Assembly: GCF_017921895.1 (NCBI RefSeq)
Contig: NZ_JAFIDN010000010.1
Coordinates: 1-64,000 of the forward strand
Direction of reading: 5' to 3'
Source of the DNA: Natronogracilivirga saccharolytica
GTDB taxonomy: Bacteria > Bacteroidota > Rhodothermia > Balneolales > Natronogracilivirgulaceae
Length of the DNA stretch: 64,000 nt
Positions 6,300-38,742 of this stretch are shown piece after piece (positions within the stretch are counted from its first letter, which is position 1; every line of letters starts with the position of its first letter). Made by a program: the position numbers and the translations under genes. The notes beneath the pieces are model-generated. The model had not been told where the DNA came from, did no database searches, and saw nothing but the letters and a program-made list of their open reading frames with translations.

Positions 6300-6911
6300 T
6301 CAGGATGTTGCGTTGCGGAAATTTTCCTCAACTTTATCCCAGTTCACTACATTCCAGAACGCGGCAATGTAGTCGGGACGGCGGTTCTGATATTTCAGGT
6401 AGTATGCATGCTCCCAGACATCCAGTCCCAGTATGGGAAGCTGGCCGTCCATCAGAGGGCTGTCCTGATTCAGCGTTGATTTGACCTCAATTTTTCCGTT
6501 CCTGTTCACAACGAGCCACGCCCAGCCGGAACCGAACCGTGTGAGTCCGGCGTTGGTAAATTTCTCTTTGAAATCATCAAAAGAGCCGAATGTGCTGTTG
6601 ATGGCATCGGCCACAGAGCCTTTTGGCTGGCCGCCGCCGTTGGGGCTCAGTATCTGCCAGAACAGCGAATGGTTGGCATGTCCGCCCGCGTTGTTGATCA
6701 CGGCCTGTTTGATGTCAGCTCCGATACTATCAATATTTTTCAACACTTCTTCTACCGGACGGTCAGCCATGGGATGCCCCTTGAGAGCGTCATTTGCCTT
6801 GGTCACATAGGTCTGATGGTGTTTGCTGTGATGAATTTCCATGGTTTTAGCGTCTATATGCGGCTCCAGCGCATCATAGGCATAAGGAAGATCAGGAAGT
6901 GTAAAAGCCAT
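6300..6911 (-). CDS. sod: Superoxide dismutase (Fe/Mn family)
   Basis: A 203-residue enzyme of standard length that converts superoxide to peroxide and oxygen, probably in the cytoplasm as no signal peptide is visible. Metal ligands are evident: His in [10 protein letters not shown], His in [10 protein letters not shown], and Asp and His in [10 protein letters not shown]. The substrate-gateway Tyr lies in [11 protein letters not shown]. Fe or Mn preference cannot be set confidently from this reading. It faces the transhydrogenase gene divergently across about 165 bases, which fits a shared link to redox balance but does not prove one. Confidence 0.97.
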
Positions 6912-7075
6912 ATATTTACCTCTTTATTTTATTGGTAGTAAGTATCTTGCGTTTCTTTCACAGTTACGTATCTATGTAACAGCATCACACTCCAAATAAT
7001 TTCTCTGTTGAAAACTGTTTTAACTGCTATCTTTAGTGACAGAAACAGATATCCGGAACAAACGGCTTATTACTT

Positions 7076-8524
7076 ATGAGCAAAGATTATGATGTCATCA
7101 TTCTGGGAAGCGGACCCTCCGGCTTCTCGTGTGCCATGCAGACGGCCAAGTTCGACAAGAAGGCCCTGATTGTAGAATCCAATGAGGAATACCTGGGGGG
7201 TGCATGGATAAACGCCGGCACAGTACCGAGCAAGGCTTTGCGGGAAACCGCCACCAACATTTACAAATACAATGCCCAGTTTGGCGATGCGGACGAAAAA
7301 AAGCCCTATGAGCAATTCCGCATGCGCGATGTACTGAAATACAAGGACCGCGTACTGGCTTCCGAAAACAGCGAGATCAAGGATAATCTGATAAAGAACG
7401 AGGTTGATACCGCACTGGGTTTCGGCCGGATCATTGATCCGCACACGGTAGAGATAAAAAGTGAAGACGGAACGGTAAAGACCTGCACCGCAGACTATAT
7501 CCTTGTGTCGACCGGTGCCCGTTCAACACAGCCTGAAGAGTTTCATGTGGACCATTCCAGGGTTCTGGACAACCGCTCTATTCTGGATATCCACTACATC
7601 CCGAAACGGCTGGTCATTGTAGGCACCAACGTGCAGGCCATCGAGTTTGCCACCATTTTTTCCGCTTTGGGAACCAGGGTTACCATTCTCAACGGCCAGG
7701 ATGACTACCTTGTATTTCTGGACCGTGAAGTGAAGAACGAATTTGCCGGCATCCTCGAAGATTTCAGGATCAATATCTTTAACCGCACGCGGGTGTTGCA
7801 GGTCGGCGAAAACCCGCTGAGAAACTGCACCGAAGTAAAGTTTGAAGAGAAGGATACCGGCAAGATGCATGTCGTAGAGACCGAGCAGGTACTCTATTTC
7901 GGTGAACGCATACCCAATTCGGCGAACATCGGGCTTGAGGATGTCGGAATTGAAACTGATGAAAAGGGCTTTGTAAATGTCGATCAGAATTACCGCACCA
8001 ACGTACCCTCCATTTTTGCCGCGGGCGATGTCATCGGTTATCCCGGACTGGCTTCGGCATCCTTTTCACAGGGAAGAATAGCGTCCTGCAACATGTTTGA
8101 AGCCTCAAGCCTCGAGATCGAAAGTGTCATTCCGTATGGCATATACAGCATACCCGAAATAGCCAGTATCGGCCTGACTGAAGCGGAAGCTCGCCAGCAG
8201 GACCATGATGTTACGATCGGGCGGGCATATTACCGCAACCTAACCAAGGCGAATATTGCAAAAAACCAGCGGGGAATGTTCAAGCTCGTATTTGACACGA
8301 AAACCCTTCGTCTGCTGGGCGTTCATATCGTGGGGGAAGGGGCCTGCGACCTGATACACATCGGTCAGGCGGTCATCCGGTTCCAGGGCAGCGTCAGGTA
8401 TTTTCTGGATACCGTTCACAATTACCCGACCTACTCGGAGGCATACAGGATTGCCGCATTCAACGGTATCAACCGGGTGTACAAATCCGGAGTCAAATAC
8501 AAGAATATTCTCGAAAACAGGTAA
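7076..8524 (+). CDS. sthA: Soluble pyridine nucleotide transhydrogenase
   Basis: A 482-residue flavoprotein of the disulfide-reductase superfamily. The FAD-binding GxGxxG is at the N-terminus (ILGSGPSGFSCAMQ). The redox-disulfide region reads GGAWINAGTVPSKALRE, so the CXXXXC pair is absent, as in SthA rather than lipoamide dehydrogenase. A second Rossmann motif (LVIVGTNVQAIEFATIF) and the FAD site (IFAAGDVIGYP) follow. The C-terminal stretch (VHNYPTYSEAYRIAAFNGIN) is characteristic of SthA. It transfers hydride between NADPH and NADH in the cytosol. The gene converges on aspS. Confidence 0.93.
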   Translation: MSKDYDVIILGSGPSGFSCAMQTAKFDKKALIVESNEEYLGGAWINAGTVPSKALRETATNIYKYNAQFGDADEKKPYEQFRMRDVLKYKDRVLASENSEIKDNLIKNEVDTALGFGRIIDPHTVEIKSEDGTVKTCTADYILVSTGARSTQPEEFHVDHSRVLDNRSILDIHYIPKRLVIVGTNVQAIEFATIFSALGTRVTILNGQDDYLVFLDREVKNEFAGILEDFRINIFNRTRVLQVGENPLRNCTEVKFEEKDTGKMHVVETEQVLYFGERIPNSANIGLEDVGIETDEKGFVNVDQNYRTNVPSIFAAGDVIGYPGLASASFSQGRIASCNMFEASSLEIESVIPYGIYSIPEIASIGLTEAEARQQDHDVTIGRAYYRNLTKANIAKNQRGMFKLVFDTKTLRLLGVHIVGEGACDLIHIGQAVIRFQGSVRYFLDTVHNYPTYSEAYRIAAFNGINRVYKSGVKYKNILENR

Positions 8525-8546
8525 CCGGACTCTTACCGGTCACCTG
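8518..8546. terminator. Convergent-gene inverted repeat (putative bidirectional terminator)
   Basis: The arms CAGGTAACCGG and CCGGTCACCTG (one mismatch) span the sthA and aspS stop codons. There is no T run on either strand, so it may block converging polymerases rather than act as a classic intrinsic terminator. Confidence 0.45.
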
Positions 8547-10314
8547 TGCCGGGAGCAAGCCGAATGTGCAGCTCCTCAAGCTGGCCTTCGTCAACAACAT
8601 CCGGACAATTGTCCATCAGGCTGACTGCCCGCTGATTTTTCGGGAATGCGATGACTTCTCTCAGGCTTTTTGCTCCGGCGAGCAGCATGGCTACCCGGTC
8701 CAGACCAAGGGCGATGCCGCCGTGCGGAGGAGCGCCGTACCGGAACGCATCCAGCAGAAAACCGAATTTTTGCTGTGCTTCTTCCGGGCCGATGCCGAGT
8801 GCCTTGAACATCCGCGACTGCACTTCCGAATTGTGGATACGAATCGATCCGCCTCCGATTTCGCTTCCGTTCATGACGAGATCGTATGCACGCGCCCGCA
8901 CTTTTGAAGGGTCCGACTCGAGCTTGTCCATATCGTCCTGGTGAGGCGAGGTAAACGGATGGTGCATGGCATAATACCGTCCGTCCTCCTCATCGTATTC
9001 GAGCAGCGGGAAATCGGTCACCCAAAGAAGGCGATACCGGGATGTGTCGATCATATCATACTCCTCTGCTATCATCAGACGAAGGTCGCCAAGCTGTTTG
9101 TACACCGTCTTCGTGGGTCCGGCAAGAATAAGAATGAGATCACCCTTGTCCGCGCCGCTGTGGCTGACCATATCTGCGGTCATCTCATCGGATACAAATT
9201 TACTGACGCTGGAATAAACCTCTTCTTCATTATTTTTGATGTAGATGAGTCCGCCTGCCCCGATTTCGTCACGGGTGCGTTTGGTGAGCCGGTCCAGAAC
9301 GCCCCGTCCGAGATCCCCTTTGCCCGGCACAACAAAACCGATGACAGCGCCGCCCTCGGCGACGGTTTTGGAAAAGACGCGGAACTCAGAAAAGCGGACG
9401 ATTTCCGAAAAATCGACAAATTTCATGTCGAAGCGTGTATCCGGCTTGTCGGTTCCGTAGGTTTTCATTGCCTCTTCGTAGGTCATTCTGGGAAACGGTG
9501 CTTCTACGTCGGCACCCATGACTCCGCTCAGAATGCTTTGCATGAGCCCCTCGCCCATGCTGTAGATTCCCTCTTCATCCACAAACGACATTTCCACGTC
9601 GATCTGGGTGAACTCCGGCTGCCGGTCGGCTCTGAGGTCTTCATCGCGGAAACACTTGACAATCTGGAAGTAGCGATCCATTCCCGAAACCATCAGAATC
9701 TGCTTGTATGTCTGGGGACTCTGGGGAAGGGCATAGAATTTACCGGGGTTGACGCGGCTGGGCACCAGATAGTCACGCGCGCCTTCCGGAGTGCTTCTCA
9801 TCAGAAACGGTGTCTCAACCTCGGCAAAATCATGTTTGTGGAAATAGTCTCTGGTCTGCCGGTAAATGGCCGAACGAAGAAGCATATTTCTCTGCATTAC
9901 CGGCCGGCGAAGATCCAGATAGCGGTGCTTCAGGCGCAGATCTTCATTGGTTTTTACGTCGTCAACAATTTCAAATGGCGGTGTGTCTGCTTTGGAGTAG
10001 ATCTGAAGACTGGTAACCCGGAGTTCTATCTGCCCGGTCGACATATTCGGGTTGACGTTTTCCGGATCCCTTTCTTTCACTTTGCCTTCAACCCCGATCA
10101 CATACTCTGAGCGCAGCTGGTCGGCAAGCTGATGAGCCTGTTTGTCATCCTGGGGTGAAAAAACCACCTGGGTTTTTCCGTACCGGTCGCGCAAGTCGAT
10201 GAAAATTACACCTCCAAGATCGCGGCGGGTGTCAACCCATCCGTTCAGAATTGCCGTTTCCCCTGTATTGTCGCGGTTCAGTTCTCCGCATGTATGTGTT
10301 CTGATCAATGTCAT
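8533..10314 (-). CDS. aspS: Aspartate--tRNA ligase
   Basis: A 593-residue class II synthetase of bacterial length. It has an N-terminal OB-fold anticodon domain, a catalytic core, and an inserted GAD domain in the middle. Motif 2 is FRDEDLRADRQPEFTQIDVE and motif 3 is GIALGLDRVAMLLAG. The conserved GGGSIRIHN precedes motif 3. It charges tRNA-Asp, and an asparagine-related non-discriminating role cannot be judged here. The start ATG begins MTLIRTHTCGELN, typical of AspS. Confidence 0.98.
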   Translation of the reverse strand: MTLIRTHTCGELNRDNTGETAILNGWVDTRRDLGGVIFIDLRDRYGKTQVVFSPQDDKQAHQLADQLRSEYVIGVEGKVKERDPENVNPNMSTGQIELRVTSLQIYSKADTPPFEIVDDVKTNEDLRLKHRYLDLRRPVMQRNMLLRSAIYRQTRDYFHKHDFAEVETPFLMRSTPEGARDYLVPSRVNPGKFYALPQSPQTYKQILMVSGMDRYFQIVKCFRDEDLRADRQPEFTQIDVEMSFVDEEGIYSMGEGLMQSILSGVMGADVEAPFPRMTYEEAMKTYGTDKPDTRFDMKFVDFSEIVRFSEFRVFSKTVAEGGAVIGFVVPGKGDLGRGVLDRLTKRTRDEIGAGGLIYIKNNEEEVYSSVSKFVSDEMTADMVSHSGADKGDLILILAGPTKTVYKQLGDLRLMIAEEYDMIDTSRYRLLWVTDFPLLEYDEEDGRYYAMHHPFTSPHQDDMDKLESDPSKVRARAYDLVMNGSEIGGGSIRIHNSEVQSRMFKALGIGPEEAQQKFGFLLDAFRYGAPPHGGIALGLDRVAMLLAGAKSLREVIAFPKNQRAVSLMDNCPDVVDEGQLEELHIRLAPGTGDR

Positions 10315-10603
10315 GTCGTTAAGTTACTGAAAATATTCCGGCGGAATCCGGTCAGCCGGAAGCCGCTCATTTCGGTCTTTTCGTTCAAAGGAGGTAAAAG
10401 GTAAGAATATTGAAAATCAATCGCTTCATTGAGTTGCTGTTTCCGGTATTAAGCTTTCTTGATAAACAGGCAGCCGGGAATAAAACTATCATGTTTTTTT
10501 TGCCATCTAACATTTTTTCATAATTTGCAATACATTACATTCAGGTAATTCTGATAATATTATGAGGAAGTACAAGGGGTGATTAGCGAGGTTGTGTTCT
10601 GCA

Positions 10604-11437
10604 ATGAAAAATCATGATTCATCACATAAACGACTGGACAAGAAGCAAATAAAAGTTACTGAACCTGCCGGTCTTCTTTTTAAAAGCAACACCCGCAACC
10701 AGCCCGTACTTCAGAACCTGCCGGCACCTGAACTGCCTGCTGAAAAGATGAAGAATTACCATCCGGCAACCAAAACGAAAGATCAGGGCCAGGGTCTGTC
10801 ATCAAAAATTGAAACTATTGAAGAAGAGCGCCGGAAAATTTCAAGGGAGTTGCATGACGGGGTCGGACAAATGCTGACAGCCGCTTTTCTGAATCTTGAA
10901 GTGCTTGAGTCTGCCATTGAAAACGGGGATGATAATGCCCTTTCAGTACTGCACAAGATCAGAAAACTTCTGGATACCACCATTCAGGAGACCCGGAATA
11001 TTTCCCACAGCCTGCGTCCATCCATTCTCGACGATTTCGGACTTATTCCCGGGTTACGCATGCTGGCCGAAGAGTTCTCTGATGCCACCGGTATTAGCAC
11101 CATCTTCCAGCATTTCAATTTTGATGCCCGGCTGGATCCCAAACTGGAAACCACGTTGTATCGAATTTGTCAGGAAGCACTGAACAACATAGCCAGACAT
11201 TCCGGAGCAACCGAGGCAACCATTGAAATTTTCAAACGAAGCGGCAATATTCTCGTCAGCATTAACGACAATGGAAAAGGTATTCCAAAAAACTACCATA
11301 AAAGCCAGAATTTCCGGGCAGGCACCGGACTGAATAACATCAAGGAGCGTATTGAACTGCACAACGGAAAACTAAGTATTAACACCATGAACAAATCCGG
11401 TACAGAATTACTGATTGAATTTCCGGCCGGGGATTGA
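10604..11437 (+). CDS. Cytosolic sensor histidine kinase (HisKA_3, NarX/DegS-like)
   Basis: The start is set at ATG 10604, 277 residues; a TTG twelve bases upstream is less likely. About 65 polar, poorly ordered residues lead into the dimerisation domain with the phospho-acceptor His (SRELHDGVGQMLTAAF). An HATPase domain follows, with the N box (CQEALNNIARHS), G1 (NDNGKGIP) and G2 (GTGLNNIKERI). No transmembrane segment or recognised sensor domain is present, so it probably senses an internal signal or partner. The response regulator gene starts about 55 bases downstream, so the two form a pair. Confidence 0.9.
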   Translation: MKNHDSSHKRLDKKQIKVTEPAGLLFKSNTRNQPVLQNLPAPELPAEKMKNYHPATKTKDQGQGLSSKIETIEEERRKISRELHDGVGQMLTAAFLNLEVLESAIENGDDNALSVLHKIRKLLDTTIQETRNISHSLRPSILDDFGLIPGLRMLAEEFSDATGISTIFQHFNFDARLDPKLETTLYRICQEALNNIARHSGATEATIEIFKRSGNILVSINDNGKGIPKNYHKSQNFRAGTGLNNIKERIELHNGKLSINTMNKSGTELLIEFPAGD

Positions 11438-11492
11438 TCATGCAAGACCCTGTACATCATATGAGAGCACTATTTTCAGACAATATTACATC

Positions 11493-12164
11493 ATGAACTC
11501 TATTGCGGAAAAAATCAGGGTTCTGGTTGCCGATGACCACGACATCGTACGCTACGGAATTTGCAGTGTTATTGGTGCATCCGACGACATCGAAGTTGTC
11601 AGTGAGGCGGCAAGCGGCAAAGAGGCTATTGATCAATACAAAAAGGTGCAGCCGGATGTCTGCATGCTGGATATTTCCATGCCGGAACTTAACGGCATAG
11701 AGACAACCCGTTCCCTGCTTGAACTGGACAAGGACGCGCGTATACTGATACTGACCATGCATATTAATGAGGAGTATCTGAACCAGGTTCTCAACGCCGG
11801 GGCCAGCGGTTACATCCTCAAAAACAGTGACCGGGATGAGCTGCTCAGAAGCATCCGGTCGGTCTACAATGGTGATCAGGCCTTCAGCCGGTCAATATCA
11901 CGGCTCATGACCGATCGATACGTAAAAAATGTCCGGAATCCGGATACCACCCCGCAGGATAAAGTCCATCAGCTTACCCGACGAGAACTTGAAGTGATCA
12001 GGCTGATTGCCGAAGGGTATACCAGCCATGAAATATCTGAAATGCTCTACATAAGTCCCAGGACGGTCGACACGCACCGGTCGAATGTCATGAACAAGCT
12101 TGAAATCAAGAACACGGCCGGACTGGTTCGCTTCGCTCTTGAAAATGACATCATTGAGGGCTGA
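11493..12164 (+). CDS. NarL/FixJ-family response regulator
   Basis: The start is ATG 11493 (MNSIAEKIRVLVADDHD), 223 residues; the longer frame from 11415 overlaps the kinase. The receiver domain has the acidic pair (ADDHD), the phospho-acceptor Asp (CMLDISMPELNG), Thr (ILTMH) and Lys (YILKNS). The LuxR-type helix-turn-helix lies at about 150-210 (LTRRELEVIRLIAEGYTSHE, ISPRTVDTHRSNVMNKL). It is the likely partner of the HisKA_3 kinase upstream. Target genes are unknown. Confidence 0.93.
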   Translation: MNSIAEKIRVLVADDHDIVRYGICSVIGASDDIEVVSEAASGKEAIDQYKKVQPDVCMLDISMPELNGIETTRSLLELDKDARILILTMHINEEYLNQVLNAGASGYILKNSDRDELLRSIRSVYNGDQAFSRSISRLMTDRYVKNVRNPDTTPQDKVHQLTRRELEVIRLIAEGYTSHEISEMLYISPRTVDTHRSNVMNKLEIKNTAGLVRFALENDIIEG

Positions 12165-27768: not shown

Positions 27769-28960
27769 AAAGGACGTCCCCCTTTGTTACATTTCAGTAC
27801 TCAGTATAACCGAAATGAAACATAATGGAGGACGCCATGATACACATCGGAATAGACCTACATACTCGCAATATGACGCTTGCCGCGGTAAATGACAACG
27901 GTGATTTGTTGAAACTGGAAAGCATTCGTTGCTGTTCCTTGGCATTAGATCGTTTTTTTTCAAAGATCAGTCATCCGGCACAAGCCGTTGTTGAAAGTAC
28001 AAGCAGCTGGTATTGGCTTGACGACTGGTTTCGCCATAAGGGCATAACCTTGAAACTGGCCCATGCCAAAATGCTCAAGGCCATCTCTTATGCTAAGGTT
28101 AAAACCGACTCTGTGGATGCGCATATGCTCGCCGAGCTGTTGCGCACTGGACTGGTTCCGGAAAGCTGGAAATCCGAAAAGCGGCAACGAGAACTTCGTG
28201 AATTGACCCGGGCTCGACTTCGGTGGATTCTTAAACGAAATCAGTTCCAAAACTTTACTTACAGTATTGCTACACGTTACAACCTGACGGTAAAATCCTC
28301 CGACTGGCGAAATGTCAGAAATTTACGCATGTCTCTCAGGAATCATCTTCCGGATGAAGCATGGCTGGAGGCAAGTCTGAGCATCGACCAGGTCATAGAG
28401 ATGCAGAATTCCATAGATCGGATTGAAAAAGCCATTGACCGGCAACTCTGGTACCGTGAAGAAGTTAAACGATTGATGGAAATTCCGGGTATCGGACCAG
28501 TAAGTGCCTGGTCCATTTTGTCTGAAGTCGGTGATATTACCCGTTTTCCTTCCGACAAGCAGTTTGCCAGTTACTGCCGTCTGGTACCGGGCAGCAATGA
28601 CAGTGGAGGAAAGCAACGCCATAAAACCGGTTCCAAAGATGGCAACAAGTATCTGAAAATTGCCTTTGGCCAAGCGGCAATTGGGGCTTATACGAATTAC
28701 GGTGAGGTGAAGAAGTTTTATAACAAGCTCAGGCGCCGCAAGGGTCCCAAAGTTGCCCGCACCATCGTAGCCAAAGAACTCTCGCGCATTGTGTGGTACG
28801 TTCTAGCGAAAAATCAGCCGTATAAAGGTTTTAAAGGCCAGATGACGAAGAAAAGCAAAAGTTATTCATGGCCCCATCCTGTAAGCCCGTAATGTAAAAC
28901 AGGGGTAGTTCCAACCCGTCAAATTGATTGGGAAACAGGGTGGCAGGCCGTTAAAAGATC
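27758..28960 (+). mobile_element. IS110-family insertion sequence
   Basis: The element encloses one transposase gene. Ends are proposed from two inverted repeats. The outer pair is GATCTTTTAA at 27758-27767 and TTAAAAGATC at 28951-28960. The inner imperfect pair is GGACGTCCCCCTTTGTTACA at 27772 and TAATGTAAAACAGGGG.. at 28890-28912. Subterminal inverted repeats are a trait of the IS1111 subgroup. No target duplication is expected. It truncates a cassette gene on its left. Confidence 0.75.
27837..28892 (+). CDS. IS110-family transposase (DEDD recombinase)
   Basis: A 351-residue transposase. The start is ATG 27837, preceded by GGAGG at an ideal distance (ATG 27825 contains the ribosome binding site). 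The RuvC-like DEDD domain has GIDLHTRNMTLAAV, VVESTSSWYWLDDW and KTDSVDAHMLAELLR. The C-terminal Tnp_20 domain has MEIPGIGPVSAWSILSEVGD and the Ser region GSNDSGGKQRHKTGSKDGNK. It appears intact. IS110 elements are guided by an element-encoded bridge RNA, to be sought in the flanking non-coding ends. Confidence 0.95.
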   Translation: MIHIGIDLHTRNMTLAAVNDNGDLLKLESIRCCSLALDRFFSKISHPAQAVVESTSSWYWLDDWFRHKGITLKLAHAKMLKAISYAKVKTDSVDAHMLAELLRTGLVPESWKSEKRQRELRELTRARLRWILKRNQFQNFTYSIATRYNLTVKSSDWRNVRNLRMSLRNHLPDEAWLEASLSIDQVIEMQNSIDRIEKAIDRQLWYREEVKRLMEIPGIGPVSAWSILSEVGDITRFPSDKQFASYCRLVPGSNDSGGKQRHKTGSKDGNKYLKIAFGQAAIGAYTNYGEVKKFYNKLRRRKGPKVARTIVAKELSRIVWYVLAKNQPYKGFKGQMTKKSKSYSWPHPVSP

Positions 28961-30586: not shown

Positions 30587-30892
30587 TTATCGAAATAACT
30601 TGCCGGGTTGGGTCGGTTTTTGCCGGACATGGAGAACCGTTGTGATGTATATTACTCGCTTCGGTTTTCGAATTCGGTATATGATTCTGTAATTTCCTTC
30701 AATGATTTCTCTTAGATCGGGATGGTTGTATTCAGGTACAATTCTACCTGATTCAGGATATTCAATGAGCTGATCTGTTCTCTCAAAAATAAGCTCAGAC
30801 CACTTTTTTGCCGCCTGGAAATTATACTGATCGATATAGTTTACGTTTGAATTAACTCTTTGGATCGCAAGTTTGGTCCAGATTACTTCCAC
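30587..30892 (-). CDS. RelE/ParE-family toxin (second copy)
   Basis: A 101-residue toxin with VIWTKLAIQRVNSNVNYID at the start, the AAKKWSELIFERTDQLIEYP helix, ESGRIVPEYNHPDLREIIEG and the strand YRIIYRIRKPKRVIYITTVL. It is only distantly similar to the ParE at 25.7 kb, so it was acquired independently. It overlaps its antitoxin by ten bases. Confidence 0.88.
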   Translation of the reverse strand: MEVIWTKLAIQRVNSNVNYIDQYNFQAAKKWSELIFERTDQLIEYPESGRIVPEYNHPDLREIIEGNYRIIYRIRKPKRVIYITTVLHVRQKPTQPGKLFR

Positions 30893-31176
30893 TTGGCCAG
30901 ATTTTCACGGATTAGTTGTTTAGCATCTTCATGAGCAATCACTTCACCACGAGCAATTTGGCCGTCTGCTTCCATGAGTTCTTCCATGAGAGTAATTTTA
31001 TCAATCATTTGTTGGTATTCGGAAACATCAACAAGAACAGCGGCACTTTTACCATGCTGAGTCAGCACTATTGATCGCTTTTCACGCTTTAGACGCCCAA
31101 TAAAATCAGCAGCATTTTTTCTGAAATCCGAAAGAGGTTGAATATCTTGCTCTAAAGAAAAATTGGATATAGCCAT
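30883..31176 (-). CDS. Phd/YefM-family antitoxin (second copy)
   Basis: A 97-residue antitoxin from ATG 31176; an upstream ATG at 31209 adds non-conserved residues. The DNA-binding region has LSDFRKNAADFIGRLKREKR and SIVLTQHGKSAAVLVDVSEY. The C-terminal tail has MEADGQIARGEVIAHEDAKQ, the toxin-binding type. It is coupled to the ParE toxin that follows. Confidence 0.9.
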   Translation of the reverse strand: MAISNFSLEQDIQPLSDFRKNAADFIGRLKREKRSIVLTQHGKSAAVLVDVSEYQQMIDKITLMEELMEADGQIARGEVIAHEDAKQLIRENLAKWK

Positions 31177-31267
31177 TGTTTTGCAATTAGGGGACAATAT
31201 GTCGTACAATTAAAGTACTAAATAATTACTTAACGTGAAAAAATGATAAGTTGGTATTGAGAAAGAG

Positions 31268-31358
31268 CGTTAACGGCCCGCAATTTAACCGGCGGGGTAA
31301 TCCCTCAGGGAAAGGCAAGAGACTTTCAACCCGTCCGCTTGAAATTGCCTGTTATATC
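31268..31358 (-). repeat. attC-like site 7
   Basis: It opens GATATAACAGGCAATTTCAA, then GCGGACGGG, and closes CCGGTTAAATTGCGGGCC, then GTTAACG. Reverse-complementing the 3' arm gives AACGGCCCGCAATTTAACCG, then GCGGG. This pairs with AAC..GC.AATTT.AA.CGG.CGGG of the 5' arm with extrahelical bases. With site 3 it is the best attC candidate. It follows the VapC stop by about 18 bases. Confidence 0.7.
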
Positions 31359-31375
31359 GCAGAAAAAATACCAGG

Positions 31376-31780
31376 CTAACCAGCTACGAAATCATCAGGA
31401 TGAATCGCAATTGCAGAAAATTCAGAAAGAATTTTTTTATCAAAAGTGACGAGTTGAATGTCAAAATCAGATGCAAGGGCTACAAATTCGCAATCATAGG
31501 CCGAGCAAGTGGACTCGGACATCAAAGTTAAAACCTGCTTTGAATTGATTGAACATTCTCTGGTACCCATGAGCTCTTCGGCTTCATCAATGGCCTGATA
31601 AATGGAAGATAAATCAAGGATCTTTTTGCGATAATACAGGGAAAGAACATTTCTGAACTCAGAAACCCACAGCAGAGGTGCAATCCACTCGGGATCCTTT
31701 TTGAGGCTTTGATAGGCCAATTGCTCCATATTATTGGGTACCCAAAAACTGGCAATCAGGTTTGTGTCGGCAACAATCAT
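31376..31780 (-). CDS. vapC: PIN-domain ribonuclease toxin (VapC family)
   Basis: A 134-residue PIN protein. Acidic active-site residues lie in IVADTNLIASFWV (Asp5), in EFRNVLSLYY (Glu), and in the later SAYDCEFVALASDFDIQLVT (paired Asp). The standard length fits VapC. Such toxins cleave tRNA or rRNA. It overlaps the RHH antitoxin stop by four bases. Confidence 0.92.
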   Translation of the reverse strand: MIVADTNLIASFWVPNNMEQLAYQSLKKDPEWIAPLLWVSEFRNVLSLYYRKKILDLSSIYQAIDEAEELMGTRECSINSKQVLTLMSESTCSAYDCEFVALASDFDIQLVTFDKKILSEFSAIAIHPDDFVAG

Positions 31781-33821: not shown

Positions 33822-34604
33822 TTAAAATCGCATTCGTTTGAAAACCGGCTCCGGAATGTGCCTGATCACACTCATGATCACCCGCCAAACCGGTCTGGTA
33901 TAGATCACGTCTTTTTTTTTGCGGATTCCTTTCAGAATGGCACCGGCCACTGTCTCCGGATCAGCGGTCAAATGTTTGGGAAGAGGTTTGCCGGCAGTCA
34001 TTTTGGTCGCTACAAAACCGGGTTTGACGGTGAGCACCTGCACTCCGTGCGGATGCAGACGCTGTCTCAAACCGGATAACAGCGAGGTAAATCCCGCCTT
34101 CGCGCTGCCGTATGTGTAGTTGTCGGCCCGGCCACGGTCGCCGGCCACCGAAGATATGCCGACGATAAACCGGTTTGCTGCCGCAGTTCCTGCGATTTCT
34201 TCATCGTTTTCTGCCGTCTTTTTCCTCTTTTCAAAATCGGCAGCAACGAGCTCGAGAATCCGGGCCGCACCTGTGTAGTTGGTTTCCATGACAGCACGGG
34301 CCTGACCGAAATCTTCACCGCAGGCTTTTTGATCAGCAAGCAGCCCGAATGCAAGTACCACCCCGTCGGGTGCCGGATCAAGATCCGCATAAAAATCCGG
34401 ATGGCTTTCGTAATCGGTGGCATCAAACCGTATTGTCGTGACATCGGCATCATACCGGGTGCGCAAATTGGCCGCTTCTCTTTCAAGTTCGTCGATATTT
34501 CGTGATGCGAGATACAGTGAGGTCCCCAGCTGCGCCATCTGACGCGCCAGCGCCACGGCAATATCACTGTTTGCTCCTAAAATCAGAACCCGTGATTGTT
34601 TCAT
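33822..34604 (-). CDS. Short-chain dehydrogenase, DprE2-like
   Basis: A 260-residue SDR. The NAD(P) motif is LILGANSDIAVALARQMAQL and the catalytic Tyr/Lys lie in YTYGSAKAG, with Ser in VGISSVAGDRGRADN. The C-terminus (IYTRPVWRVIMSVIRHIPEP, then VFKRMRF) matches the DprE2 type, which reduces the 2'-keto sugar intermediate to decaprenylphosphoryl-arabinose. It is the last gene of the operon, 83 bases after the DprE1-like gene. Confidence 0.85.
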   Translation of the reverse strand: MKQSRVLILGANSDIAVALARQMAQLGTSLYLASRNIDELEREAANLRTRYDADVTTIRFDATDYESHPDFYADLDPAPDGVVLAFGLLADQKACGEDFGQARAVMETNYTGAARILELVAADFEKRKKTAENDEEIAGTAAANRFIVGISSVAGDRGRADNYTYGSAKAGFTSLLSGLRQRLHPHGVQVLTVKPGFVATKMTAGKPLPKHLTADPETVAGAILKGIRKKKDVIYTRPVWRVIMSVIRHIPEPVFKRMRF

Positions 34605-34687
34605 AATGCTGCCTCGGTAAATCAGTGTATGTTTTCTGATGGAACGGACTGCCGGCGAAGATCATCTGCTGTCCATTTTCGTCACAT

Positions 34688-36100
34688 TCACAGCCCCAGT
34701 CTGAGTGACTGCATTGACTGAAATTTTTTGTCCAGCCCCAGCGCTTTCCTGAGCTTGCGAAACCGGTCCGCACGGGGATAGCCCCGATCAAACATCCTGC
34801 GGCTCATTCGTGCATCTTTGGCCAGGTAGACCCGTCCGTTGTATTTTATGACCAGCCGATCGAGCCGATCAAACAGATCCTGCAGGCCATTTTGTATCTT
34901 GAAATCCAGCGCCAGACTGTATCCTTCCATGGGAAAGGAGAGGTAGTGATCATTTTCAGGGCCATACAGCTTCAGCACGGCAAGGAAGCTGCCCATCCTG
35001 CTTTTTGTAATTTCAGCAAGTATTTCCTCCATCCCGTTGAAACTGGTCTCTTTGGGAAGGATAAACTGATACTGCATCATCCCGCTGCGGCCGTAAATCC
35101 GGTTCCAGTTCCGGAGACGATCCAGCGGATAAAAAAATGAATCCAGGCCGACATTGCCGGAACTTTGCCCCCGCGGCGCTTTTCGGTAGTAAAGAGCGTT
35201 AAAAAGGGATATGGTATGGCGGTTCAGCAGCGATCCGGGAAAAGCATCCGGAATGCGCACACCCTGTCCGGGCGGAGTGTAGTCAATTGTGCGTTTTCGC
35301 TGCGATGGTGCCCGGCGGGTTTCGGTTTGCCCGGATTCGCCGGCGGCGTCACCCGGACCGGCAAAATCGCCCAGCATGATAAGCGATCTTCCAAGGTTGC
35401 TTCCGCCGGAAATACAGTCGATCCATGCGACAGAATAGGGTGCATCGTGGTGGGTTTCGAAGGCTTCAAATGTCCCGGCCAGGTCCCGCGTTTTGACGGT
35501 CGTCTGCCGGATGCTCGCCGAGGGGACGGGCTGCAGGAGTATCCCGGCCTGAATGATGATGCCGGTTAGGCCCATCCCGCCGCATGTCGCATGAAAGAGT
35601 TCGGTTTCCTGTCCGGTCGAACATCTGACGACAGATCCGTCCGCAAGCATGAGATCAATCCACTTCACCCACGTGCCGAAGCAGCCGGCTTTATGATGAT
35701 TTTTCCCATGGACATCCGCTGCGATGGCTCCGCCGATGGTGGTATATTTTGTGCCGGGGGTCACGCGCAGAAACCATCCGCGCGGCAGAAATGTGCCGAT
35801 GACATCGGCCAGCAGCACGCCCGCTTCGCAGACAAGCAGCCCGTCGGACGCATCAAAGCTGAGCATACGATCGAGCGGACGCATATCCGCCACCCGGTCT
35901 GAGAGCGCACTGTCTCCGTAACTGCGTCCCTGACCGAAGGCAATCAGCTGTCCTTCGGCCTGAAGGCTCTGCTTCAGGGTTTGCCGGTCAAATGCCGGCT
36001 CCACCCGGGACCGGACCACAGGATGACGTCCCCATCCCGAAAGGGTTGTTTCGTACCCGCTGACAGGATGTTTGTGATCAGGGGGGCGGTCTTCACTCAT
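34688..36100 (-). CDS. FAD-dependent oxidoreductase, DprE1-like
   Basis: A 470-residue VAO-family flavoenzyme. FAD-binding signatures are FGQGRSYGDSALSD, VTPGTKYTTIGGAIAADVHG and GKNHHKAGCFGTWV. The catalytic Lys lies in YLAKDAR (Lys428, matching Lys418 of M. tuberculosis DprE1). DprE1 oxidises decaprenylphosphoryl-ribose at C2'. The residue aligned with the benzothiazinone-reactive Cys387 is Ala397 (YSLALDF). The gene lies 16 bases after the membrane-protein gene. The paralogous group includes other sugar oxidases, but the DprE2-like and UbiA neighbours favour this call. Confidence 0.88.
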   Translation of the reverse strand: MSEDRPPDHKHPVSGYETTLSGWGRHPVVRSRVEPAFDRQTLKQSLQAEGQLIAFGQGRSYGDSALSDRVADMRPLDRMLSFDASDGLLVCEAGVLLADVIGTFLPRGWFLRVTPGTKYTTIGGAIAADVHGKNHHKAGCFGTWVKWIDLMLADGSVVRCSTGQETELFHATCGGMGLTGIIIQAGILLQPVPSASIRQTTVKTRDLAGTFEAFETHHDAPYSVAWIDCISGGSNLGRSLIMLGDFAGPGDAAGESGQTETRRAPSQRKRTIDYTPPGQGVRIPDAFPGSLLNRHTISLFNALYYRKAPRGQSSGNVGLDSFFYPLDRLRNWNRIYGRSGMMQYQFILPKETSFNGMEEILAEITKSRMGSFLAVLKLYGPENDHYLSFPMEGYSLALDFKIQNGLQDLFDRLDRLVIKYNGRVYLAKDARMSRRMFDRGYPRADRFRKLRKALGLDKKFQSMQSLRLGL

Positions 36101-36116
36101 ACGTCAGATTTTGGGT

Positions 36117-37748
36117 TCACAGTTTACAGATATGATGATATTTGAGTGTGATGTGCTCGCTGCAGCTCACATCGGGGTACTCCCCGGCAATGTATCCGTC
36201 AGTAAGGTAAACAATATAATGTATCCCGTTGTTGTCAAAATCCCGCTGCCTGAACATGGTGTTGGGCTGAAAATCGCGGAACGCGGGATGCTTGTTGAGC
36301 CATCCCTGAAAATTGTTGACCTGCAGCGTGTTGTAATTGCGGAACCAGATATTGTAGTCATCGCTCATAATGCGGTTGGCATCCGTGGCTCCGAGCTGTT
36401 TGAGTGCCGGCTCGAGCTCCTGCTCCATATAGCGGTTCTGCTCCCTGAGGTGCACTTCTTCGCGGATCAGGTGAAGCAGTGAGAGTCCGCCGGCAATCAG
36501 CACTATCGCGGCAAGAGCGGCCGGCATCCGGGGATGCTTCCGGAAGGCGCAGATCAGAAAGCCAAAAGAGAGCGAGGCGGCAAGCATTGCAGGATAGAGT
36601 CCCCGCTCGAGCCCGGGAAGAATCAGCGGGATGTAGATTATGGCCGTGATACATGCGGCTGCATGGAACCAATGCCGGGTCAGAAACCATCCGCCGGCGG
36701 GTATGGCCAGCACCAGCACAAGCGGCAGCCACAACGGTCTCACCGCTGCAGCGGCGGCGCGAAACGGCCTGGCGGGATCATCGGCGAGAACGGAAAGCAG
36801 GCTGAATTCCTGATAGCCGGCGGATGCAAGCAGCAGGTCGACGCGGTACCAGTCCATTCCGTAAAGAAATTGATAGACATTGAATTTCTGCCAGCTGACG
36901 GGTCGGATTTCCGGATGGATGACGGTGATGGCCAGAAATCCCGCCAGCGGAATCAGAATCAATCCCCATGAATACGCAAGCAAGGGTGCCGCAGAGCGAA
37001 CCGTTTTTGTCATCCTCCCGGGCAATCCGTCGGAAGGATGGTCAGCGGAATGTCCGGGGTCTGCTGCGGATGCGGCTGCCCGGTCCGCAAATCGGGACTG
37101 GTACGCTGAAGAAAGAACCGCGGCTGTGAGGAATATCAGCAGAAACGGCAGTGCGTGCTGCCGGAACAGCACAGAAAATCCGGCTGCGAGCAGACCTGCG
37201 GATGCGGCCGCACCAATGCGGGAGTCCGACATCACGCACCTGAGAAATAGCATAAGTCCGATCGATAAAAGAAACAGGAAAACCCCGTCCGAGTAGTTCA
37301 GTTTGAGAACGGCGAACAGCACCAGATGAATCAGGAACGCGGCGATGGCGGGAATACTTCCGGCAAGCGGTGTTTCGCCGGTGGCGGATAAAACGGTACC
37401 GGTGCCTGAAGCCTCCTCGGACAGGGCCGCCGGAAACCGTACCGTTGCAAAAAGTCCGGACATCAGCCAGAAAGAAACGGCCGTCAGCAGCAGAAATATT
37501 GCGGCCGTGAGCGCCATCGATCCCCCGGTCAGCAGATATAACAGCGTATAACCCGGACCGAAAAATCCATTCACCCAGCGATCCGGTCCCTCAAGAGAAG
37601 CAATTTTGAATATGCTTATGATGTCGTTCAATGTGGGCACGAAATCCACAGCGATCATGAATCTTCCGACGATAAGGATCATCAGAAACATGGTCAGGAT
37701 TCGCACGATGAATCCCGCAGACATCCTATATAAACCTGGTTCAGACAT
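36117..37748 (-). CDS. Polytopic membrane protein, possible GT-C glycosyltransferase
   Basis: A 543-residue protein with about 11-12 hydrophobic segments and a soluble C-terminal domain of about 120 residues (from about LREEVHLREQNRYM). The layout resembles GT-C enzymes that use polyprenyl-phosphate sugars, with an acidic first loop (VDFVPTLNDI). No specific family signature was recognised. It sits between the UbiA and DprE1-like genes and overlaps the UbiA stop by eight bases, so it is a good candidate for the user (or flippase) of the polyprenyl sugar. This is inference from context. Confidence 0.65.
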   Translation of the reverse strand: MSEPGLYRMSAGFIVRILTMFLMILIVGRFMIAVDFVPTLNDIISIFKIASLEGPDRWVNGFFGPGYTLLYLLTGGSMALTAAIFLLLTAVSFWLMSGLFATVRFPAALSEEASGTGTVLSATGETPLAGSIPAIAAFLIHLVLFAVLKLNYSDGVFLFLLSIGLMLFLRCVMSDSRIGAAASAGLLAAGFSVLFRQHALPFLLIFLTAAVLSSAYQSRFADRAAASAADPGHSADHPSDGLPGRMTKTVRSAAPLLAYSWGLILIPLAGFLAITVIHPEIRPVSWQKFNVYQFLYGMDWYRVDLLLASAGYQEFSLLSVLADDPARPFRAAAAAVRPLWLPLVLVLAIPAGGWFLTRHWFHAAACITAIIYIPLILPGLERGLYPAMLAASLSFGFLICAFRKHPRMPAALAAIVLIAGGLSLLHLIREEVHLREQNRYMEQELEPALKQLGATDANRIMSDDYNIWFRNYNTLQVNNFQGWLNKHPAFRDFQPNTMFRQRDFDNNGIHYIVYLTDGYIAGEYPDVSCSEHITLKYHHICKL

Positions 37749-38679
37749 ACAAAATCCAGATCAGACTTGCCATCCATCCCGCCAGTACGATCTGCAGAAA
37801 ACGGTCGCGCAGCAGAATGAGCGAGGGGTTTCCGCTTTTCTCTTCAACAAAAGTAATATACATGTACCGGAGGATGCCGAGTATCACAAAAAGGGACGTC
37901 ATGTAAAGCGACTCCTGCTCCAGCCGGTCCGCAATTTCCGTGGAAAAGGTCCAGAGTATATAGGCCAGCACCACAACCGAGGCGGTCATAACCATCGAGG
38001 AGTCAATGAATTTGAGGTTGTAACCGATGGGTTTGCGGATGGGTTTGCCGGCGGTTTGGGGCGCGTCCTTTTGAACAATGATATCATCCCGGCGTTTGGC
38101 AAACGAGAGAAACAGGGCAAGCAAAAAGGTCAGCACGATAATCCACGGGGAGAGGGTTACACCGGCGGCATCCGCACCGACCAGCAGGCGGATGACAAAT
38201 CCCAGTCCGATCACCGTAACATCCAGAAGCGGAATGTGTTTCAGCTGCCGGGAATACCATCCGTTCATCAGTATGTAGCCGGATATGAGCAGGGCGATAA
38301 CGGAGGATAGCAATGCAGAAATGAGCAGCGCCCCTGCAATCAGAACGCCCATAAGAACAAACGCATGGCTCGCCGAAATGGCGCCGGAAGCAAACGGCCT
38401 GTGCTTTTTCCCGGGATGCCGGGCATCTTCGGCGCGATCCATCCAGTCATTGAATATGTAAACGGCACCGGCGGCCATGCAAAACGCAGCAAAGGCGATG
38501 AAGGTGCGCTCCGCAATATGGGGGTCATCCATCCGGAAATCGAAAAACGCCGGCAGAAAAATGAACAGATTTTTTGTGTACTGATAGGGCCGTATCAGCC
38601 GCATCAGATTTTGCAGCGTTCCCCGGACCGATTGTGGCGGAGCGCTTTTGCCGAGATGCTTTCTGTCGTTTTTTTCCAT
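37741..38679 (-). CDS. UbiA-family prenyltransferase, DPPR-synthase-like
   Basis: The start is ATG 38679 (MEKNDRKHLGKSA), 312 residues; a start at 38754 would lie upstream of the ftsZ terminator. About nine membrane segments are present. The first Asp-rich motif is YIFNDWMDRAEDARHPGKKH, with NDxxDxxxD and the basic HPxKxxRP stretch of decaprenyl-phosphate phosphoribosyltransferases. Conserved YTKNLFIFLP and NGWYSRQLKHIPLLDVTVIG also fit. It should transfer 5-phosphoribose from PRPP to a polyprenyl phosphate. First gene of the operon. Confidence 0.85.
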   Translation of the reverse strand: MEKNDRKHLGKSAPPQSVRGTLQNLMRLIRPYQYTKNLFIFLPAFFDFRMDDPHIAERTFIAFAAFCMAAGAVYIFNDWMDRAEDARHPGKKHRPFASGAISASHAFVLMGVLIAGALLISALLSSVIALLISGYILMNGWYSRQLKHIPLLDVTVIGLGFVIRLLVGADAAGVTLSPWIIVLTFLLALFLSFAKRRDDIIVQKDAPQTAGKPIRKPIGYNLKFIDSSMVMTASVVVLAYILWTFSTEIADRLEQESLYMTSLFVILGILRYMYITFVEEKSGNPSLILLRDRFLQIVLAGWMASLIWILYV

Positions 38680-38702: not shown

Positions 38703-38742
38703 GAAAAATAAAAAGGGCTGCCCCGGTCAAAGAACAGCCCTT
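38703..38742 (-). terminator. Rho-independent terminator after ftsZ
   Basis: On the minus strand the stem AAGGGCTG/CAGCCCTT is followed by TTTATTTTT. It lies about 20 bases past the ftsZ stop, ends the dcw cluster, and separates it from the UbiA operon. Confidence 0.85.

What the first reader, a model, noticed from the sequence alone, without database searches (positions are those of the whole stretch)
33822..38679. Four-gene polyprenylphosphoryl-arabinose-like operon outside Actinobacteria
A UbiA-type phosphoribosyltransferase, a DprE1-like oxidase, a DprE2-like reductase and a polytopic membrane protein form one operon right behind the division cluster. In mycobacteria the first three make decaprenylphosphoryl-arabinose, the only donor of cell-wall arabinofuranose. 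A pathway in a Balneolota-like organism implies an arabinofuranosyl surface glycan or glycolipid. No DPPR phosphatase is nearby, and the membrane protein is an unassigned candidate arabinosyltransferase.
Basis: partly seen in the sequence, partly recalled or inferred. Interest (0 to 1): 0.65.

Follow-up and report, generated by a model that had tools for sequence, protein, structure and literature searches.

The report
Lipid-linked arabinofuranose operon in Balneolales
A bacterium related to soda-lake species carries a compact four-gene set that most likely makes a lipid-carried arabinose building block and attaches it to a surface molecule; this kind of pathway is already known in many bacteria, and only the family of its last enzyme appears to be new.

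Summary
Four co-directional minus-strand genes (33822-38679) follow ftsZ: a UbiA-type polyprenyl-phosphate phosphoribosyltransferase, a 543-aa polytopic protein, a DprE1-like oxidase and a DprE2-like reductase. The best structural matches are Mycobacterium DPPRS and DprE1, and catalytic motifs are intact. An intrinsic terminator separates the operon from ftsZ. The same order behind ftsZ recurs in one related Balneolales MAG; the first three genes recur in a contig-truncated copy from a second.

The implied surprise does not hold. D-Araf pathways outside Actinobacteria are published (Pseudomonas pilin, Azorhizobium noeCHO, 2024 pentofuranose-systems paper). DprE1 homologues occur in 64 of 297 sampled genomes of this phylum; 22 of 29 loci inspected have both UbiA and DprE2 adjacent.

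What is new is modest. The membrane protein belongs to a small family with no Pfam or NCBIfam hit, found in this genome and two Balneolales MAGs. A distant homologue scores as PMT_2, so it is very probably a GT-C transferase using polyprenyl-P-Araf. Some other clades carry HAD phosphatase or GtrA-type flippase genes beside the core; my searches found neither here, so those steps are unassigned. Acceptor and sugar identity are inferred. Verdict: new member of a known kind.

The parts
37741..38679 (-). UbiA-type polyprenyl-phosphate 5-phosphoribosyltransferase (DPPRS/PPPRS homologue), 312 aa from ATG
   Evidence: NCBIfam DPPRS models 218.7 and 204.1 bits; PDB 8j8j E 2.2e-29; N77-D78-D81-D85 motif intact and invariant in six Balneolales sequences
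36117..37748 (-). 543-aa polytopic membrane protein, probable GT-C polyprenyl-P-arabinofuranose:acceptor transferase of an undescribed family; Asp42 follows TM1
   Evidence: no Pfam/NCBIfam/PDB family hit itself; orthologues in two Balneolales MAGs; HMM hit E 1.3e-12 to a G183 protein that is itself PMT_2 at 9e-11; N41-D42, N60-G61-F62, G297-x-D299-W300 invariant in four sequences
34688..36100 (-). DprE1-like FAD oxidase of polyprenyl-P-ribose, 470 aa
   Evidence: NF053785 407 bits; PDB 4p8c/4fdn E 1.6e-83; His131 and Lys428 match Mtb His132 and Lys418; Ala397 replaces Mtb Cys387
33822..34604 (-). DprE2-like short-chain reductase, 260 aa
   Evidence: NF005489 309 bits (above cut-off), NF053786 DprE2 186 bits; S151, Y165, K169 triad
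38713..38742 (-). intrinsic terminator-like hairpin with T-run between ftsZ and ubiA, separating the operon from the division cluster
   Evidence: 12 bp stem, TTTATTTTTC tail

Best explanation
The operon makes a polyprenyl-phosphate-linked pentofuranose, most likely D-arabinofuranose, and uses it outside the cytoplasm. [quoted passage not shown] An unassigned phosphatase encoded elsewhere removes the 5-phosphate. DprE1 (FAD) oxidises C2 and DprE2 (NAD(P)H) reduces it, inverting ribose to arabinose. An unassigned flippase moves the lipid across the membrane, and the 543-aa GT-C protein transfers Araf to a surface glycan, lipid or protein. Shown here: the genes, motifs, conserved operon and GT-C superfamily link. 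Inferred: sugar identity, phosphatase, flippase, acceptor.
For: Homology and motifs of the three core enzymes. Same four-gene order behind ftsZ in G019, and the first three genes in the same order in the contig-truncated G013 copy. In the same taxonomic order the core recurs with other partner genes: UbiA-GtrA-DprE1 in G332; UbiA-DprE1-DprE2 beside a different polytopic protein in G308/G222. Membrane protein linked to PMT_2 GT-C by HMM through G183. Published precedents pair DprE1/E2 homologues with Araf-containing glycans and GT-C transferases (PMC11127046).
Against: No dedicated DPPR phosphatase: the HAD-IB type found beside the operon in other clades was not found in this genome or its closest operon-bearing relatives, and the one PAP2 protein resembles undecaprenyl-diphosphatases and was not matched in G019, G308 or G222. 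No GtrA flippase found. Equivalog cut-offs not reached for DPPRS, DprE1 and DprE2. Structure models of the membrane protein failed (pLDDT 40-44), so the GT-C fold is not seen directly.
Confidence: 0.83

Rival explanations
1. The core makes a lipid-linked pentofuranose, but the DprE1/E2 pair acts on another polyprenyl-P-sugar or produces another epimer (e.g. xylofuranose or a modified ribose).
For: DprE1 and DprE2 scores are below curated equivalog cut-offs; donor promiscuity is documented for the Citrobacter GT-C ORF12.
Against: Xylf systems use a different single SDR epimerase, and DprE1/E2 homologues go with Araf-containing glycans; DprE1 catalytic residues and the UbiA motif are conserved and the three genes travel together.
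Confidence: 0.1
2. The 543-aa membrane protein is the lipid-sugar flippase rather than the transferase, and the transferase is encoded elsewhere.
For: No GtrA-like flippase was found in the genome, and other loci carry a GtrA gene next to the core.
Against: Homology to PMT_2 GT-C proteins through G183; conserved Asn-Asp after TM1 and a roughly 110-residue C-terminal non-membrane region with conserved Asp, Trp and Tyr residues.
Confidence: 0.06

Closest known systems
Mycobacterial DPA pathway (Rv3806c DPPRS, Rv3807c phosphatase, DprE1/DprE2, Emb/Aft transferases)
   Same: same three core enzyme families and predicted reaction order
   Different: no dedicated phosphatase or Rv3789-type flippase identified; the transferase candidate has no detectable similarity to solved Emb/Aft chains; Cys387 is Ala, so covalent benzothiazinone inhibition is not expected (own knowledge of that target); lipid probably undecaprenyl (inference)
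Gram-negative three-component pentofuranose systems (Citrobacter ORF12/14/15, GT136; PMC11127046)
   Same: PPPRS plus epimerase plus GT-C; DprE1/E2 variants are assigned to Araf-containing glycans in that paper
   Different: no PRP domain fused or adjacent, no MATE gene in the operon, GT-C candidate matches no Pfam or NCBIfam family directly
Pseudomonas aeruginosa group IV pilin arabinosylation (TfpW and D-Araf genes; cited in PMC11841053)
   Same: DPPRS/DprE homologues outside Actinobacteria feeding a GT-C arabinosyltransferase
   Different: acceptor here unknown; no direct comparison with TfpW was made
UbiA-DprE1-DprE2 clusters elsewhere in the same phylum
   Same: core trio adjacent in 22 of 29 inspected loci
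   Different: some of these clusters carry HAD phosphatase (separate or fused to UbiA) or GtrA genes and other polytopic proteins

Membership tests
DPPRS / polyprenyl-P phosphoribosyltransferase (UbiA superfamily) | UbiA homology with N-D-x-x-D-x-x-x-D in cytoplasmic loop II | tested here: met
DPPRS / polyprenyl-P phosphoribosyltransferase (UbiA superfamily) | score above NCBIfam equivalog cut-off | tested here: not met
   218.7 vs 234 bits and 204.1 vs 207 bits; so described as a homologue, not filed as the equivalog
DprE1 | full-length FAD oxidase homology with Mtb His132 and Lys418 equivalents | tested here: met
DprE1 | score above NCBIfam equivalog cut-off | tested here: not met
   407 vs 500 bits
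DprE1 | oxidation of polyprenyl-P-ribose at C2 | not testable with these tools
   needs enzyme assay
DprE2 | SDR with Ser-Tyr-Lys triad, next to dprE1, matching the DprE2 model | tested here: met
DprE2 | score above NCBIfam DprE2 equivalog cut-off | tested here: not met
   186 vs 250 bits
GT-C glycosyltransferase superfamily (543-aa protein) | sequence homology to an accepted GT-C family | tested here: met
   indirect only: HMM E 1.3e-12 to a G183 protein, which is PMT_2 at E 9e-11
GT-C glycosyltransferase superfamily (543-aa protein) | GT-C fold | tested here: inconclusive
   AlphaFold models of low confidence, Foldseek without significant hit
Complete DPA-type pathway | dedicated DPPR 5-phosphatase (Rv3807c-type PAP2 or HAD PRP) | tested here: inconclusive
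   no HAD PRP homologue found; one general-looking PAP2 and HADs of other subfamilies; genome 97% complete
Complete DPA-type pathway | lipid-sugar flippase (GtrA/Rv3789 or MATE) | tested here: inconclusive
   no PF04138 hit in the genome, but a GtrA-like protein in G332 scores below the cut-off, and MATE proteins were not searched

The most novel reading that the evidence does not exclude
The membrane protein founds a new GT-C arabinofuranosyltransferase family confined to a few haloalkaline Balneolales genera, working with an unrecognised DPPR phosphatase and flippase in place of the known HAD/PAP2 and GtrA/MATE enzymes.
Probability: 0.3. Interest if true: 0.4.

Novelty: new member of a known kind. 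Interest (0 to 1): 0.25.

Why it matters
It adds Balneolales to the bacteria predicted to carry lipid-linked arabinofuranose, offers an uncharacterised GT-C family to test, and points to lineages that seem to run the pathway without the usual phosphatase gene. It also corrects the idea that such operons are a mark of Actinobacteria.

Tried and rejected
Direct family, PDB and Foldseek searches of the membrane protein gave nothing; two AlphaFold runs with three sequences were too poor to use. hhalign of the membrane family against partner membrane proteins of other clusters found no significant similarity, so partner proteins seem to differ between clusters. Co-transcription with ftsZ was considered and not favoured because of the terminator-like site. 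Recent transfer from Actinobacteria was considered: the DprE1 tree puts the window inside a Balneolales group far from the single Mtb row, but only one actinobacterial sequence was used, so this is weak. The PAP2 protein was considered as DPPR phosphatase and not favoured: its best NCBIfam hit is undecaprenyl-diphosphatase SepP (below cut-off) and it has no match in G019, G308 or G222, while it does occur in G017, which lacks the operon.

Full report
What is there. The four minus-strand genes are at the stated coordinates. ubiA starts best at ATG 38679, because the upstream TTG start would place a terminator-like hairpin (38742-38713) inside the coding region. ubiA overlaps the next gene by 8 nt and the following gaps are 16 and 83 nt, so the set looks like one transcription unit, separate from the division cluster that ends with ftsZ.

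Enzyme assignments. UbiA matches the DPPRS models (219 and 204 bits) and PDB 8j8j (E 2e-29), with the N-D-x-x-D-x-x-x-D motif intact; the equivalent residues were shown to matter in Citrobacter ORF15 (PMC11127046). DprE1 matches its model at 407 bits and PDB 4p8c at E 2e-83; Mtb His132 and Lys418 are kept, and Cys387, the benzothiazinone target (own knowledge), is Ala397. The SDR matches the DprE2 model at 186 bits and has the Ser-Tyr-Lys triad. All three scores are below NCBI's equivalog cut-offs, so I call them homologues with the same predicted role.

The membrane protein. It has no family, PDB or structural hit of its own and AlphaFold models were unusable. Orthologues were found in only two other genomes, both Balneolales MAGs labelled CSSed; that CSSed means soda-lake sediment is my reading of the sample name. 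A profile of the three finds a distant homologue in G183 (E 1.3e-12), and that protein is a PMT_2 member (E 9e-11). All four share Asn41-Asp42 after the first predicted TM segment, Asn60-Gly61-Phe62 and Asp299-Trp300. This makes it very probably a GT-C transferase, the class used by known extracytoplasmic pentofuranose systems.

How common it is. Operon-bearing genomes are rare near the window: DprE1 in 3 of 20 genomes of the family, UbiA homologues in 9 of 129 of the order, some of them weak matches. In the phylum sample 64 of 297 genomes have a DprE1 homologue. Of 29 non-own loci inspected (the best-scoring ones), 22 have both UbiA and DprE2 within the fetched flanks and the other 7 have one of them. 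Some carry a HAD-IB phosphatase gene, a HAD-UbiA fusion, or a GtrA gene. D-Araf pathways outside Actinobacteria are described in PMC11127046, in the TfpW work cited by PMC11841053, and predicted for noeC/noeH/noeO in PMC2443382.

What is missing. The HAD-IB phosphatase found beside other clusters was not found in G000, G019, G013, G308 and G222 but is present in G332, G285, G118 and G026. G019 and G013 are incomplete (80% and 67%). G000 has one PAP2 protein, closest to undecaprenyl-diphosphatases and unmatched in G019, G308 and G222, and a MtnX-like HAD. No GtrA was found, though a GtrA-like protein in G332 scores below cut-off, so a divergent one could be missed. The genome is 97% complete. 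These two steps stay unassigned.

Mechanism and limits. The best reading is PRPP to polyprenyl-P-ribose-5-P, dephosphorylation, C2 epimerisation to arabinose, flipping, and GT-C transfer. Gene content, motifs and synteny are shown; sugar identity, lipid, flippase, phosphatase and acceptor are inferred.

Evolution. The window DprE1 groups with G019, G013, G308, G222 and G336 in a supported set from the same order (97/97), and its UbiA with G019 and G013 (100/99). Because only one actinobacterial DprE1 and no proteobacterial row was included, origin by transfer is not tested.

Verdict. The operon is real and its reading as a lipid-linked arabinofuranose pathway is sound, but it is a new member of a known and widespread kind. 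The parts that could still surprise are the transferase family and the missing phosphatase and flippase.

Noticed in passing
window 30587-31780: ParE-type toxin and Phd/YefM antitoxin pair followed by a PIN-domain protein, just beyond the operon.
   Followed up: partly
window 27825-28892: IS110-family transposase.
   Followed up: no
L027 (G285:C3), about 6473-11911: UbiA, DprE1 and DprE2 homologues broken across several frames, while G285 has a second copy at L025 with full-length frames: looks like a decaying duplicate or an assembly error.
   Followed up: no
L073 5466-7823 and L074 5607-7795: Divergent DprE2-DprE1 pairs in family f40 on a long branch, with no UbiA in the fetched stretch.
   Followed up: no
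L020 12392-13123: Second DprE2-like SDR about 4 kb beyond the G019 operon.
   Followed up: no
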